Assembly (NCBI RefSeq): GCF_000702065.1
Contig: NZ_JNKN01000005.1
Span: forward strand, 62,001-126,000
Length of the DNA stretch: 64,000 nt
Direction: 5' to 3'
Origin: Kandleria vitulina DSM 20405
Lineage (GTDB): Bacteria; Bacillota_I; Bacilli_A; Erysipelotrichales; Coprobacillaceae
In this document: positions 17,271 to 25,535 of the stretch, piece by piece
Position numbering within the stretch: the stretch's first letter is position 1
Layout of the letters: each line of letters opens with the position of its first letter
Notes under the pieces: model-generated
Told to the model about the DNA's origin: nothing
Database searches by the model: none
The model's input: only the letters and a program-made list of their open reading frames with translations
Program-made: the position numbers and the translations under genes

Positions 17271-18488
17271 GTGATGATCAAAGCTGGTAAGACTCTTTTG
17301 AAGCATGGATACAGATTGAAAATCTTTAATACCATCAACTTCAAAAAGAGCATGCACTACAACCCTTTTGCCTACATTCACTCAGAAAAGGACATCCTGA
17401 AACTGGTGAATACCCTTATCGCAAATATGAAGGGCGATGGCAAGGAAGGGGATGAATTTTGGACGAAGGCCGAGACTCTTCTTTATTGTGCGCTGTTTGG
17501 ATATATACATTATGAGGCACCGGAGGAAGAGCAGAACTTTTATACGCTACTAGAATTTCTGAATGCTTCAGAGGTTCGCGAGGATGATGAGGATTATGAA
17601 AATCCAGTAGATATGATGTTTCATGATCTAGAAAAGAAGAGTCCAAATCACTTTGCGGTAAGGCAATATCGTAAACACAATCTGGCGGTGGGTAAAACAG
17701 CAAAATCTATTCTTGTGAGCTGCGGTGCAAGACTTGCTCCATTTGATATTGCAGAGCTTCGAGAAATCACAAGCTACTATGAATTAGAACTGGACACCAT
17801 GGGAGATAGAAAGACAGCATTATTTCTCATTATGAGTGATACAGATGCTACCTTTAATTTCTTGATTTCTATGGTCTACAGTCAGCTTTTCAATCTGCTT
17901 TGTGAGAAGGCCGATGATGTGTATGGTGGTAGACTTCCGGTACATGTTAGATGCCTCATCGATGAGACAGCCAATATCGGACAGATCCCAAACCTGGAGA
18001 AACTAGTAGCAACCATTCGAAGTCGTGAGATTAGTGCTTGTCTGTTCTTGCAGGCAAAGTCACAGCTGAAAGCCATCTATAAGGACAACACGGATACCAT
18101 TATTGGAAATATGGATTCTCAGTTGTTCCTTGGTGGCATTGAGCCAACCATGCTGAAGGATTTATCCCAGTTCCTTGGAAAAGAAACCATCAACATGTAT
18201 AACACCGGCGAGAGCAGGGGCAACAATCCTTCCTACTCTATGAACTATCAGAAGAGTGGTAAGGATCTCATGACCATGGACGAAATTGCAGTCATGGATG
18301 GTGACAGATGCATCCTGCAGCTTCGAGGTGTACGTCCATTTTTGTCGGACAAATATGATGTCACTCAGCATCCACTTTATAAAGAGACTGGCGAGTATGA
18401 TGAGAGGAATAAGTTGGATATAAAACGGTTTCTGCATCAGGGGATTAAGGTGAAAAGTGGAGAGATTTTTGATGTAATTAAAGTATAG
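17271..18488 (+). CDS. VirD4/TraG-type conjugation coupling protein, N-terminally truncated
   Basis: 406-aa C-terminal part of a type IV coupling ATPase that delivers DNA to the conjugation channel. Visible: PKGDVMIKAGKTLLKHGY just at the start, then HYNPFAYI, LVNTLIANMKG.., VGKTAKSILVSC, the Walker B region CLIDETANIGQIPNLEKLVA and FLQAKSQLKAIY. The membrane segments and Walker A loop normally found upstream are missing, and an in-frame TGA lies 15 bp before the GTG. Typical of Tn1549-like elements. Not expected to be active. Confidence 0.85.
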   Translation: MMIKAGKTLLKHGYRLKIFNTINFKKSMHYNPFAYIHSEKDILKLVNTLIANMKGDGKEGDEFWTKAETLLYCALFGYIHYEAPEEEQNFYTLLEFLNASEVREDDEDYENPVDMMFHDLEKKSPNHFAVRQYRKHNLAVGKTAKSILVSCGARLAPFDIAELREITSYYELELDTMGDRKTALFLIMSDTDATFNFLISMVYSQLFNLLCEKADDVYGGRLPVHVRCLIDETANIGQIPNLEKLVATIRSREISACLFLQAKSQLKAIYKDNTDTIIGNMDSQLFLGGIEPTMLKDLSQFLGKETINMYNTGESRGNNPSYSMNYQKSGKDLMTMDEIAVMDGDRCILQLRGVRPFLSDKYDVTQHPLYKETGEYDERNKLDIKRFLHQGIKVKSGEIFDVIKV

Positions 18489-19221: not shown

Positions 19222-19305
19222 CTACAAATTAAGAAAGCTATTTATTTTGATATTACGCAGTGTTATATTAACATTGTAGTGCTTGTTTTTGATAATGATT
19301 ATGGC

Positions 19306-19334
19306 TTGACAGATAAGGGCAATCTATCTATAAT
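19306..19334 (+). promoter_or_regulatory. Perfect consensus promoter upstream of the Abi gene
   Basis: TTGACA (19306-19311), exactly 17 bp, TATAAT (19329-19334). The expected start is near 19341. Confidence 0.85.
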
Positions 19335-19340
19335 GTAAGC

Positions 19341-19385
19341 ATAGGATTAGGTCAGGAAGCGTACGACGCCCTGGCCATTTTTTTT
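19341..19385 (+). ncRNA. Candidate short self-terminating leader RNA of the Abi gene
   Basis: From the predicted start the RNA runs about 45 nt. It has a 7-bp stem (19350-19356 with 19370-19376, one G-U) and a 13-nt loop AAGCGTACGACGC, and ends in eight T. The Abi ATG follows 10 nt later. It could be a discrete RNA (antitoxin-like) or an attenuator; expression is inferred. Confidence 0.55.
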
Positions 19386-19394
19386 GGAGAAAAT

Positions 19395-20348
19395 ATGAAA
19401 GAGTATAAGACTTTTAATCAGCAATTAAAGATATTACGACAGAGAGGGATGATAGTTCCAACAGATGGAACTCCCAAGCGATTTCTTGAACAAGAAAACT
19501 ATTATAATGTTATAAATGGATACAAGGATTTGTTTTTAAAAAAGGATGCTAATGGTGTTCCTTTGGATCCAGAGGAGTATCAAACAAATACTCAATTTAA
19601 AGAATTAAAGGCGCTTTTTCTCTTTGATAGAGAGCTAAGATTCTTGTTTTTAAAATACATTCTTATTTTTGAAAACTCTTTTAAAACTGTTTTTTCGCAT
19701 GAGTTTTCTAGAAAATATCCTAAAGCAAATTCATACTTGGAATTACAGAATTATGTTGATAATAATCCTAAGAATGTTTTGAAACAGTTGTCTATTCTAA
19801 CTAAAACTATTCATGATCAAGTGGATAAGAAAGGGGCGATAAAACATTATATTGAAACGTATGGTGCTGTACCTTTGTGGGTGTTAGTTAATAATCTTAC
19901 AATTGGAAACATGTCTCATTTATATAATGTTCTTAAAGATACTGAGAAGAATATAATCGCCAAATATTATTCAGATAAGTTTGCAAAACAATATGGCACA
20001 ACTAATTTGCTCAGAGTTAGTGCTGAAGATATGCAATCTGCACTCAAAATATTCAATTTAGTAAGAAATAGATGTGCCCACGAAGAGAGACTTTACAATT
20101 CTGACTTTGGTAATGTTAGAGTAGCTAATATGGCGAAACATTTTGGGATGACAAACTACAATAACAGAAGAATTGTTGTGGCTATTATTTACTTAAAAAT
20201 AATGCTTAATAAGAAGTATTTTAAAAAGTTTTATTCTGAGTTGATGGATATTCTTAGAAGATATCAGGGAGAATTTGTAACAGTTTCTTTTGATAGTATA
20301 CTTGACATAATGGGAATTGATTTGTTGGATATTCAAAAATTAAATTAA
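19395..20348 (+). CDS. Abi_2 (AbiD/AbiF) family abortive-infection protein
   Basis: 317-aa member of the Abi_2 family, HEPN-fold predicted RNases linked to phage abortive infection. Family blocks: TFNQQLKILRQRGMIV, LEQENYYNVINGYKDLFL and FDRELRFLFLKYILIFENSF. A HEPN catalytic R-x4-H is visible in VRNRCAHEERLYN near residue 225. A GGAGAAA site precedes the ATG. It has its own consensus promoter, an early terminator and a downstream structured hairpin. AbiF-type proteins have been linked with RNA antitoxins and with Cas13 ancestry; application to this locus is inference. Confidence 0.88.
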   Translation: MKEYKTFNQQLKILRQRGMIVPTDGTPKRFLEQENYYNVINGYKDLFLKKDANGVPLDPEEYQTNTQFKELKALFLFDRELRFLFLKYILIFENSFKTVFSHEFSRKYPKANSYLELQNYVDNNPKNVLKQLSILTKTIHDQVDKKGAIKHYIETYGAVPLWVLVNNLTIGNMSHLYNVLKDTEKNIIAKYYSDKFAKQYGTTNLLRVSAEDMQSALKIFNLVRNRCAHEERLYNSDFGNVRVANMAKHFGMTNYNNRRIVVAIIYLKIMLNKKYFKKFYSELMDILRRYQGEFVTVSFDSILDIMGIDLLDIQKLN

Positions 20349-20364
20349 TAGAAATGCACTTTAC

Positions 20365-20408
20365 ATAGACCAGTACCTCTGGGGACGCCTAGATTTGTAC
20401 TGGTCTAT
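20365..20408 (+). ncRNA. Strong two-part hairpin downstream of the Abi gene
   Basis: A perfect 12-bp stem (20365-20376 with 20397-20408) is capped by a second 6-bp stem (TCTGGG / CCTAGA, one G-U) with a GACG tetraloop. No T-run follows, so it is not a standard terminator. Possibly an RNA processing or binding element. Confidence 0.45.
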
Positions 20409-20514
20409 TATTATGCCCATTTTTAGCGCAAGGAATGGACATGAGCCGAAACTATTAATCAATTTTCAAGAAAGGAAAATTCGGGAGAAGCTACTTCCGA
20501 ATGAAGGTACGATG

Positions 20515-20934: not shown

Positions 20935-21449
20935 ATGGAAAGAATATTTGAGCAAATGACCTCTTGGCTCAAGGACTGGATTGTAGATGGGCTGATGAGC
21001 CTGCTGACAGGAACATTTGACAGTATCAATGCCAGGTTGGAAGTGTAGCTGCAGATGTAGCAACATGCCCGGCGGATTTCACGCCGGGTGTTTTCAACCT
21101 AATGAAGACGGTGTCTAACAATGCGATTATGCCGATTGCCGGTATGATTCTCACATTCATTGCATGTTATGAGCTGATTCAACTGGTCATCGCCCACAAC
21201 AATCTGGCAAACTTTGAAACATGGATATTCTTCAAATGGATATTCAAGACTTATGTAGCAGTAATGCTGATCACGTATTGCTTTGATATCACCATGGCAA
21301 TTTTCGATGTGGCGGGGCATGTGATTTCTCAGAGTGGAAATATTATCCAAAACTCTACAGCAGTGAATGCATCCCAACTTGCGCAGATGCGTTCCACACT
21401 AGAGGCCATGTCCATCAGAGAACTGTTGCCACTGTTTATGGTAATCTAA
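20935..21449 (+). pseudogene. TrbL/VirB6-like conjugation membrane protein, frameshifted and truncated
   Basis: Begins MERIFEQMTSWLKDWIVDGL and LMSLLTGTFDSINAR. A one-base shift near 21034 is followed in the other frame by ADVATCPADFTPGVFNLMK, SNNAIMPIAGMILTFIACYE and long hydrophobic segments. The conserved channel protein of Tn1549-like elements is ~290 aa; here only ~170 aa remain and the C-terminus is lost. It follows Maff2 in the usual order. Not functional as read. Confidence 0.8.
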
Positions 21450-23141: not shown

Positions 23142-23762
23142 ATGGAAACTAAGGAATATTTGAAATATATAGTGGAAGAAATCCATACAACGATCGTGGC
23201 AACGGTAGATGATGAAGGACTACCTGTTACAGCTGCTATAGATATGATGGATTATGATAATGACAGTTTATATTTCCTTACAGCAAAAGGAAAGGGATTT
23301 TATGACAGGCTGATAAAAAGACAGTTTCTTGCGTTTACGGCAATGAAAGGTGAGGATACCATGTCAAGTGTTGCAGTATCCATTCGTGGTAAAGTAAGAG
23401 ACCTTGGACATGGCAAGATACCGGAGCTGTTTAAGAAAAATCCATACATGCATCAGATTTATCCGACGGAAGAATCCATGAAGGCATTAACAGTATTTCA
23501 GATATATGAGGGAACTGGTGAGTGGTTCGATCTGTCAAAGAAGCCTATAGAAAGGGCATCCTTTAACTTTGGAAAAGTAGAAATAAGGCATGAAGGATAT
23601 TTTATTAAAGATAATTGTATCGGTTGTGGAAGATGCTTATCAGTCTGTCCCCAGAGATGTATCATTACTACCAGAATTCCGTATGTCATAGAGCAGGAAC
23701 ATTGTCTGCACTGTGGTAATTGTTTGAATACCTGTCCTGTCGGGGCAGTGGTTAGGAGATGA
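23142..23762 (+). CDS. PNPOx-fold flavoprotein fused to a 2[4Fe-4S] ferredoxin domain
   Basis: 206 aa. Residues ~1-140 form a pyridoxamine-phosphate-oxidase-like split barrel (IVATVDDEGLPVTAAIDMM, LYFLTAKGKGFYDRL, SVAVSIRGKVRD) expected to bind FMN or F420. The C-terminus has two cluster motifs: CIGCGRCLSVCPQRC and CLHCGNCLNTCPVGA. This suggests electron transfer between flavin and ferredoxin-type clusters. The ATG at 23142 has GGACGTGG upstream (weak). It overlaps the macrodomain gene by 4 bp. Substrate unknown. Confidence 0.87.
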   Translation: METKEYLKYIVEEIHTTIVATVDDEGLPVTAAIDMMDYDNDSLYFLTAKGKGFYDRLIKRQFLAFTAMKGEDTMSSVAVSIRGKVRDLGHGKIPELFKKNPYMHQIYPTEESMKALTVFQIYEGTGEWFDLSKKPIERASFNFGKVEIRHEGYFIKDNCIGCGRCLSVCPQRCIITTRIPYVIEQEHCLHCGNCLNTCPVGAVVRR

Positions 23763-24571
23763 AAGCTATGTCAAAGAATACAAAACAAGAAGAACGTCTT
23801 GATTATCTTGTAGAAGAGTTCAAGGCAGATTCAGATGAATATAAGGAATTACAGACTCCAAATAGTACGGAAGATAAAAGACGAATCTTAAGGTCGCTTA
23901 TGAACATCCGTATGCCAAAAGAATTGTCATCTGAAGTAATGAAAGTACAGGATGAATATCTGACAGAAAGATTAGCTGAAAAAGGTGTAGTGAATCTATC
24001 AGACATCCCGGTTATCAGGGATGGACTTTCTATCTGGCAAGGAGATATCACAAGACTTTCGGTGGATGCTATTGTTAATGCCGCTAATTCGCAGATGCTT
24101 GGTTGTTTTGTTCCGATGCATACTTGCATAGATAACTGTATTCATACTTTTGCAGGAGTGCAATTAAGAGCTGAGTGCAACAGGCAGATGAATGAACTTC
24201 GAATCAGATATGGAAGAGACTATGAACAGCCTACTGCCGTTCCAATGCTCACTGAAGCGTATAATCTTCCGGCAAAGAAAGTTATTCATATAGTAGGACC
24301 AATTGTCCAATACAAACTTACTCCTGAATTGGAAAAGGATTTGGAGAACTGCTATAGAAACACTTTGGATATGTGTGCTGAAAATGGCCTGAAGAGTGTT
24401 GCTTTTTGCTGTATTTCGACAGGGGTATTTCATTTTCCTAACAAAAAAGCAGCTGAGATTGCGGTTAAGACTGTATCAGAATGGCTCCGTGATAATCCTG
24501 GTAAGGTAGAAAGGGTGATATTCAATGTTTTCAAAGATGAAGATAAGGCCATTTATGAAAAAATTATATGA
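23759..24571 (+). CDS. Zinc-type macrodomain protein-ADP-ribose hydrolase
   Basis: 270 aa. After an N-terminal helical region, the macrodomain shows DGLSIWQGDITRLSVDAIVN, AANSQMLGCFVPMHTCIDNC (the Cys/His zinc site special to the SirTM-linked class), IHTFAGVQLR, and STGVFHFPNKKAAEIAV. Known members remove ADP-ribose from protein side chains. The ATG at 23759 overlaps the preceding stop; MSKN at 23768 is an alternative. It overlaps the sirtuin gene by 47 bp, so the eraser and writer are coupled. Confidence 0.92.
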   Translation: MKAMSKNTKQEERLDYLVEEFKADSDEYKELQTPNSTEDKRRILRSLMNIRMPKELSSEVMKVQDEYLTERLAEKGVVNLSDIPVIRDGLSIWQGDITRLSVDAIVNAANSQMLGCFVPMHTCIDNCIHTFAGVQLRAECNRQMNELRIRYGRDYEQPTAVPMLTEAYNLPAKKVIHIVGPIVQYKLTPELEKDLENCYRNTLDMCAENGLKSVAFCCISTGVFHFPNKKAAEIAVKTVSEWLRDNPGKVERVIFNVFKDEDKAIYEKII

Positions 24572-25535
24572 TGATATGCCTAATGGTTATCAGGAGACTA
24601 TAAAGAAAGGAATGAATGCTGTGAGATACTTTTCTAGAAGCATGTCCCATGGTAAAGGAAGCAAAGAAGAGCAAATAAAAAGGCTTTTGCAAGAAATCAA
24701 GGAAGCAGACGCCATTGTCATTGGAGCAGGAGCGGGACTATCAACATCAGCAGGGTTTACTTACAGTGGCGAACGTTTTGAAAAATATTTCTATGACTTT
24801 GCCAAAAGATTTGGTATCAGGGATATGTATTCAGGTGGATTCTATCCGTTTCCAAGTGAAGAAATCCGCTGGGCCTGGTGGGCAAGACATATTTATTTTA
24901 ACAGATATATTGATGCTCCAAAGCCAGTGTATAGGGATCTTCTTAAGATGGTTTCCGATAAGGATTATTTTGTTATCACAACAAATGTAGATCACCAGTT
25001 TCAAAGAGCAGGTTTTGACAAGAAAAGACTATTCTATACTCAGGGTGATTATGGTTTATTTCAGAGCGTGAATCCTGCTATTCAGAAAACCTTTGATAAT
25101 GAAGAGTGGGTAATGAAAGCTATGGAAGCACAAGGGTTTGTAAGAGATGATCAGGGAGTATTTCAGGTACCGGTTGATGGGAAGTTATTGATGGAAATTC
25201 CTTCTGAAATGATTCCAAAGTGCCCTGATGATGGCTCTGATATGACTATGAATTTGAGAGCGGATGATTCTTTTGTTGAAGATGAAGGATGGCATAGGGC
25301 ATCTGCAGCATATTCTGATTTTATTCGTAGACATGAGAATCTTCATGTTCTTTATCTTGAATTGGGAGTAGGAGCTAATACGCCCGTAATAATAAAGTAT
25401 CCGTTCTGGCAGATGACGCTGGCAAATGAAAAAGCGGTATATGCCTGCTTAAATTATGGTGAATCATTCTGTCCAGAGGAAATTGCAGATAGAAGTATAT
25501 GTATTGATGGTGATATTGCAACCATATTACAATAG
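24525..25535 (+). CDS. SirTM-class sirtuin (protein ADP-ribosyltransferase)
   Basis: 336 aa. The NAD site is IVIGAGAGLSTSAGFTYSGE followed by RFEKYFYDFAKRFG, the signature of the SirTM class; TTNVDHQFQRAGF and the LELGVGANTPVIIK region follow. The zinc-ribbon cysteines of deacetylase sirtuins are largely absent. Known SirTM proteins ADP-ribosylate a lipoylated GcvH-like carrier encoded beside them. No GcvH-L or lipoate ligase gene is seen here, so the target is open. The ATG at 24525 has AAGGGTGAT upstream; 24555 is an alternative. Confidence 0.9.
   Translation: MFSKMKIRPFMKKLYDDMPNGYQETIKKGMNAVRYFSRSMSHGKGSKEEQIKRLLQEIKEADAIVIGAGAGLSTSAGFTYSGERFEKYFYDFAKRFGIRDMYSGGFYPFPSEEIRWAWWARHIYFNRYIDAPKPVYRDLLKMVSDKDYFVITTNVDHQFQRAGFDKKRLFYTQGDYGLFQSVNPAIQKTFDNEEWVMKAMEAQGFVRDDQGVFQVPVDGKLLMEIPSEMIPKCPDDGSDMTMNLRADDSFVEDEGWHRASAAYSDFIRRHENLHVLYLELGVGANTPVIIKYPFWQMTLANEKAVYACLNYGESFCPEEIADRSICIDGDIATILQ

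What the first reader, a model, noticed from the sequence alone, without database searches (positions are those of the whole stretch)
19306..20408. Abi_2/AbiF HEPN gene with a perfect promoter, a self-terminating 45-nt leader RNA and a downstream two-part hairpin
The Abi gene (R-x4-H HEPN motif RNRCAH) has a perfect TTGACA-17-TATAAT promoter. The RNA from it would meet a 7-bp stem plus eight U within ~45 nt, 10 nt before the ATG. A second structure (12-bp stem plus 6-bp stem with GACG loop) sits right after the gene. From memory of recent work, AbiF-type HEPN proteins are toxins held by small RNAs and related to Cas13 ancestors. The layout here suggests a toxin with an RNA antitoxin or attenuator, but I cannot tell which hairpin is the partner.
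Basis: partly seen in the sequence, partly recalled or inferred. Interest (0 to 1): 0.75.

Follow-up and report, generated by a model that had tools for sequence, protein, structure and literature searches.

The report
AbiF toxin with hairpin RNA antitoxin
A bacterial RNA-cutting suicide gene is preceded by a 45-letter RNA hairpin that should stop its own transcription and is probably the toxin's antidote; nearly identical hairpins precede all close relatives of the gene, and a few copies stand alone, one of them in a phage, where it may disarm the toxin.

Summary
At 19306-19385 a perfect TTGACA-17-TATAAT promoter precedes a predicted 45-nt RNA ending in a bulged hairpin and eight U, 9 nt before the ATG of an Abi_2/AbiF HEPN gene. 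Which hairpin is the partner can now be answered: the leader. All 14 AbiF relatives of 61-97% identity whose upstream DNA is held carry it, almost letter-identical where coding DNA has fallen to about 70%, and it varies by compensatory changes. A model of this RNA alone found a further locus, and AbiF (75%) lies right behind it. The downstream hairpin is confined to the nearest relatives. Rfam's abiF RNA (RF03085) does not match, so this is a clade-specific abiF RNA in which one hairpin seems to be both antitoxin and terminator. L. lactis AbiD1 has a Northern-proven 50-nt RNA of the same layout; C. difficile AbiF is neutralised by its leader RNA. That suggests action in trans, possibly as an anti-AbiF decoy. 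No wet evidence exists for this locus.

The parts
19306..19334 (+). SigA-type promoter TTGACA-17-TATAAT
   Evidence: Sequence; only perfect match in the window; same hexamers or near and 17-nt spacing in 13/13 homologous loci
19341..19385 (+). Predicted 45-nt leader RNA: proposed AbiF antitoxin RNA that is also an intrinsic terminator
   Evidence: Conserved in all 14 close AbiF loci held, with covariation; fold z -3.1
19350..19376 (+). Hairpin: 7-bp outer stem, 5' AA bulge, 4-bp inner stem, ACG loop
   Evidence: RNA fold, pair counts
19378..19385 (+). U8 tract of the terminator
   Evidence: Sequence
19395..20348 (+). abiF: Abi_2-family HEPN protein, 317 aa, proposed RNase toxin
   Evidence: Pfam Abi_2, PADLOC AbiD, homologous to PDB 8VZ6
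20064..20081 (+). Codons of the HEPN R-x4-H motif R224-NRCA-H229
   Evidence: Alignment of seven homologues
20365..20408 (+). Downstream two-part hairpin: probably 3' end or border of the cassette, not the antitoxin
   Evidence: Fold z -5.5; kept with a different paired inner stem in L004, absent from distant relatives

Best explanation
This is an AbiF-type, type III-like toxin-antitoxin (abortive infection) module carried as cargo in a conjugative element. A strong SigA-type promoter makes a 45-nt RNA whose single bulged hairpin plus U8 stops most transcription before abiF. Occasional read-through makes the abiF mRNA, translated from the GGAG that follows the U-tract. The abundant short RNA binds the AbiF HEPN RNase and keeps it inactive. 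If the short RNA is lost, for example when a phage takes over transcription, the toxin is freed and arrests the cell. Shown here: layout, conservation, covariation, linkage to one AbiF clade, and existence of the RNA apart from abiF. Inferred from the C. difficile RCd22 and L. lactis AbiD1 precedents: the transcript, termination, binding, neutralisation and toxicity.
For: Leader in 14/14 close AbiF loci, identical in core at 65-69% protein identity; compensatory changes, 99.2% of cells paired, above all shuffles and slid controls; invariant promoter spacing; RNA-only search found L116, which has AbiF right behind it; within the order the RNA occurs in exactly the four genomes with this AbiF clade. 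Unpaired letters (5' tail, bulge, loop) are conserved too, and the RNA exists without abiF, so it is more than a cis terminator. [quoted passage not shown] a 50-nt terminated RNA lies upstream of abiD1 (PMC2661086).
Against: No transcript, binding or toxicity data for this clade. The RNA has one unit, whereas RCd22 has two motifs plus a separate terminator. RF03085 does not match. Orphan copies in genomes lacking Abi_2 could mean another function. Within sister pairs of orphans the RNA differs about as much as its flanks.
Confidence: 0.8

Rival explanations
1. The leader is only a transcription attenuator: its terminator keeps AbiF low in cis, and the released RNA has no activity of its own.
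For: The hairpin is followed directly by U8 and the gene. In AbiD1 a 50-nt terminated RNA is seen and control was placed at translation (PMC2661086).
Against: A bare terminator needs neither a fixed stem sequence nor a fixed 5' tail, bulge and loop, all of which are conserved. The RNA occurs with its own promoter apart from abiF, and in phage Javan291 without a U-tract.
Confidence: 0.1
2. The RNA is a general small RNA with another target; AbiF merely uses it as a leader, which would explain stand-alone copies in mycoplasma-type genomes and before KilA-N genes.
For: Seven records hold the RNA without AbiF next to it, four of them in genomes with no Abi_2 gene.
Against: All close AbiF loci held carry it; outside the orphans no hit lies apart from AbiF in the order (316 genomes) or the Lachnospiraceae sample (329). 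No shared second gene family accompanies the orphans.
Confidence: 0.07
3. The downstream two-part hairpin (20365-20408) is the RNA partner of AbiF.
For: Strong fold, z -5.5; the inner stem stays paired with different letters in L004.
Against: Absent or degenerate in relatives below about 75% identity and in L003 and L008; interrupted by an IS3-type element in L002 while abiF and leader remain.
Confidence: 0.02

Closest known systems
C. difficile phi027/phiC2 AbiFCd with ncRNA RCd22 (abiF RNA motif, Rfam RF03085)
   Same: Abi_2 HEPN protein; RNA directly upstream from a SigA promoter; terminator before abiF; conserved bulged hairpin; read-through needed for the toxin.
   Different: RCd22 is about 130 nt with two abiF motifs and a separate terminator; here one 45-nt hairpin does both. 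The RF03085 model matches phiC2 but not this leader. The two proteins are about 29% identical.
L. lactis AbiD1 (pIL105)
   Same: Northern-proven 50-nt RNA that stops at a terminator just before the gene (PMC2661086); Abi_2 family.
   Different: Different RNA sequence; neither R2 nor RF03085-like. Activation there was linked to phage Orf1 and translation.
PbAbiF with AbiFr ncRNA (PDB 8VZ6; Zilberzwige-Tal et al.)
   Same: Homologous protein (phmmer E 9.6e-9, residues 2-237) with R-x4-H; RNA-inhibited HEPN dimer, proposed Cas13 ancestor (described in PMC12737573).
   Different: Its RNA could not be compared with the tools here; the primary paper is not in the library.
ToxIN and the pseudo-ToxI RNA of phage PhiTE
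   Same: RNA antitoxin upstream of an RNase toxin with a terminator between; a phage carries an antitoxin-like RNA without the toxin, as Javan291 does here.
   Different: ToxN is not a HEPN protein and ToxI is repeated. PhiTE mimicry was shown by experiment (PMC3475682); the Javan291 case is sequence only and concerns an AbiF RNA joined to a tRNA gene.

Membership tests
AbiF/AbiD (Abi_2) HEPN proteins | Abi_2 domain | tested here: met
   PF07751 E 4.8e-40, whole profile
AbiF/AbiD (Abi_2) HEPN proteins | HEPN motif R-polar-x3-H | tested here: met
   R224-N225 ... H229 invariant in seven homologues
AbiF/AbiD (Abi_2) HEPN proteins | RNase activity and toxicity | not testable with these tools
   Needs expression
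Type III toxin-antitoxin (AbiF type) | RNA encoded directly upstream of the toxin, same promoter, terminator between | tested here: met
   Promoter, hairpin and U8 before the ATG in 13/13 loci measured; by sequence only
Type III toxin-antitoxin (AbiF type) | RNA structure under selection | tested here: met
   Covariation above 500/500 shuffles
Type III toxin-antitoxin (AbiF type) | RNA binds and neutralises the toxin | not testable with these tools
   Shown for RCd22 (PMC12373285), not for this clade
Type III toxin-antitoxin (classical ToxIN) | Tandem repeats in the antitoxin RNA | tested here: not met
   Single copy of the hairpin in the window and one unit in each leader
Rfam RF03085 abiF RNA | Match to the covariance model | tested here: not met
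   No match up to E 10 in the locus or in the leader alone, though the model finds phiC2
AbiF RNA models of Zilberzwige-Tal et al. | Match to those covariance models | not testable with these tools
   The models are named in PMC12804078 but are not held here

The most novel reading that the evidence does not exclude
The 45-nt AbiF RNA is a mobile, trans-acting antidote. Phage Javan291 carries it without AbiF, joined to a tRNA-Tyr whose RNase P processing would free it, as an anti-AbiF decoy. The Anaerococcus and mycoplasma-type copies are stand-alone antidotes that protect against incoming AbiF elements.
Probability: 0.4. Interest if true: 0.78.

Novelty: new variant of a known kind. Interest (0 to 1): 0.58.

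Why it matters
AbiF with its RNA is the proposed ancestor of Cas13 and its crRNA. A clade whose RNA is one 45-nt hairpin that also terminates transcription would be about the simplest such pair, convenient for structural and in vitro work, and Rfam lacks it. Orphan copies in a phage and in genomes without AbiF make a testable case of RNA-based counter-defence outside ToxIN and CRISPR.

Tried and rejected
Rfam on the window, the locus and the leader alone: no RF03085. Downstream hairpin as partner: rejected, not conserved. A general AbiF leader architecture (outer stem, 5' bulge, short inner stem, small loop): 11 of 33 distant AbiF leaders fit against 0.6 in shuffles, but the descriptor was formed on some of these, and in a hold-out of 13 only 2 fitted, one of them a plain terminator; some clades share it, so it is not claimed as general. 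The AbiD1 leader as a member: no match. AlphaFold model from 7 sequences: mean pLDDT 39, not used. Leader in plasmids by blastn: none. Short 16-mer scan of viral contigs: apart from two AbiF prophages the hits are chance matches lacking the hairpin. Degenerate full-length pattern in viral contigs: only the two streptococcal prophages already known.

Full report
OBSERVATION. The sequence is as described. TTGACA (19306-19311), 17 nt and TATAAT (19329-19334) form the only perfect promoter of this type in 64 kb. From the predicted start A19341 the RNA reads AUAGGAUUAGGUCAGGAAGCGUACGACGCCCUGGCCAUUUUUUUU (45 nt). It folds at -15.6 kcal/mol into a 7-bp stem, an AA bulge, a 4-bp inner stem and an ACG loop. 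GGAG and the ATG follow. The gene is a 317-aa Abi_2 protein with R224-N-R-C-A-H229, homologous over residues 2-237 to the solved Abi family protein 8VZ6. The downstream structure exists (12+6 bp, z -5.5).

CONTEXT. Upstream lie a VirD4-like coupling protein of the CD1115 family and an unknown 211-aa protein; downstream lie Maff2 and a TrbL-like protein. The cassette is therefore probably cargo inside the conjugation module of an integrated element. It is the only Abi_2 gene found in the 2.1-Mb genome. In L004 homology to the window runs only from 19296 to 20431, so promoter, leader, gene and downstream hairpin are together there in a different setting.

WHICH HAIRPIN IS THE PARTNER. Relatives were gathered from GTDB genomes and phages. 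Fourteen AbiF loci at 61-97% protein identity have their upstream DNA held: window, L002-L007, L009, L011, L029, L030, L045, L046, L116. All carry the leader. Its 29-nt core is identical to the window in L006 and L007, which are 65-69% identical in protein and 69-70% in aligned DNA. In the 13 loci measured the promoter has a 17-nt spacer and exactly 5 nt between the -10 box and the conserved RNA start, while the remaining flanking DNA differs. Changes inside the hairpin are compensatory: GCG/CGC to GCA/UGC, and G-C to U-G at the bulge-closing pair. Of the cells, 99.2% are paired, and the covariation score exceeds all 500 shuffles and all slid controls. Adding four orphan or stand-alone copies gives five pairs with changes on both sides. 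The downstream hairpin is found only in the closest loci. L004 keeps it with a different paired inner stem. An IS3-type element (rve and HTH_21 domains) splits it in L002. L003 and L008 keep remnants, and the other loci examined lack it.

LINKAGE. Model R1 on 316 genomes of the order hit exactly the four genomes that hold an AbiF of at least 61% identity. None of the 33 distant AbiF-bearing loci tested, AbiD1 included, carries the RNA. Model R2 on 329 genomes of the Lachnoanaerobaculum family gave one previously unseen hit, L116, with AbiF (75%) starting right behind it and an AbiEi-like/AbiEii pair upstream; this was a blind confirmation. The RNA is rare: under 2% of genomes in the order, phylum, class and Lachnospiraceae samples.

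ORPHANS. The same RNA also occurs without AbiF. (a) Streptococcus phage Javan291 (L044:3001-3041, R1 61.5 bits): no U-tract, but a tRNA-Tyr begins at the next bases, and the phage has no Abi_2. It differs by two bases from the leaders of the AbiF-carrying streptococcal phages Javan119 and Javan235. (b) Two Anaerococcus genomes (L080, L101): own -10 box and U-tract, followed by a frameshifted KilA-N gene. One of these genomes also has the AbiF-linked copy. (c) Four small genomes (0.8-1.0 Mb) whose genes read TGA as Trp: one locus type lies between DHH-type genes and uvrC, the other elsewhere. They have TATAAT or TAAAAT boxes at the same distance, several compensatory changes, and no Abi_2 gene in the genome. 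In L009 abiF is broken after 33 codons while the RNA persists. Caution: between the sister pairs the RNA differs about as much as its flanks, so present-day constraint on the orphans is not proven.

MECHANISM. The RNA's unpaired letters are conserved as well as its pairing, and it exists as a separate gene. A bare terminator explains neither. The best reading is that one 45-nt RNA is both the terminator that limits abiF read-through and the RNA that inhibits AbiF. This follows C. difficile RCd22, reported to terminate, bind and neutralise in cis and in trans (PMC12373285), and has a layout precedent in AbiD1, where a 50-nt RNA was seen by Northern (PMC2661086). Expression, binding and toxicity for this clade are inferred.

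KNOWN OR NEW. The kind of system is known: AbiF with an RNA antitoxin. This RNA is not matched by RF03085, is not repeated, and merges the conserved motif with the terminator. Zilberzwige-Tal et al. built models of AbiF RNAs (named in PMC12804078) that could not be tested, so this subtype may be listed there. An abiF (RF03085) RNA was noted in cyanophage S-CREM1 (PMC9964418). Phage RNA mimicry is proven for ToxIN (PMC3475682). An AbiF RNA joined to a phage tRNA was not found in the literature searched.

Noticed in passing
L044:3001-3125 (Streptococcus phage Javan291, MK448727.1:14330-14454): An AbiF leader RNA without abiF, placed directly 5' of a tRNA-Tyr in a phage, upstream of the terminase region: candidate RNA decoy.
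   Followed up: partly
L080 (reverse strand about 1541) and L101 (reverse strand about 1508): Stand-alone copies of the RNA with promoter and U-tract before a frameshifted KilA-N gene in two Anaerococcus genomes; one lies near SIR2-like and DUF4062-like genes.
   Followed up: partly
L081, L082, L083, L071: Stand-alone copies with compensatory changes in four small genomes that read TGA as Trp and have no Abi_2 gene. L083 also holds a DUF3800-I RNA (RF02969) at 1102-1216.
   Followed up: partly
L014, L015, L016, L018, L024, L051, L058, upstream of abiF: Distant AbiF genes have other leader RNAs, often as two tandem units of about 30 nt (such as GCGATGGTAACTCTACGGGGCCCATTGC), each followed by its own terminator-like hairpin.
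   Followed up: partly
window 17271-18488 and 21102-21449: The VirD4-like and TrbL-like genes match only parts of their families, so the conjugation module of this element may be decayed or rearranged.
   Followed up: no
window 23759-25535: A macro-domain protein overlaps a 336-aa protein without a Pfam match that resembles sirtuins, like known macrodomain-sirtuin operons (resemblance from memory).
   Followed up: no
L116:5-1311: An AbiEi-like and AbiEii pair lies directly upstream of the AbiF cassette, pointing to a small defence island.
   Followed up: no
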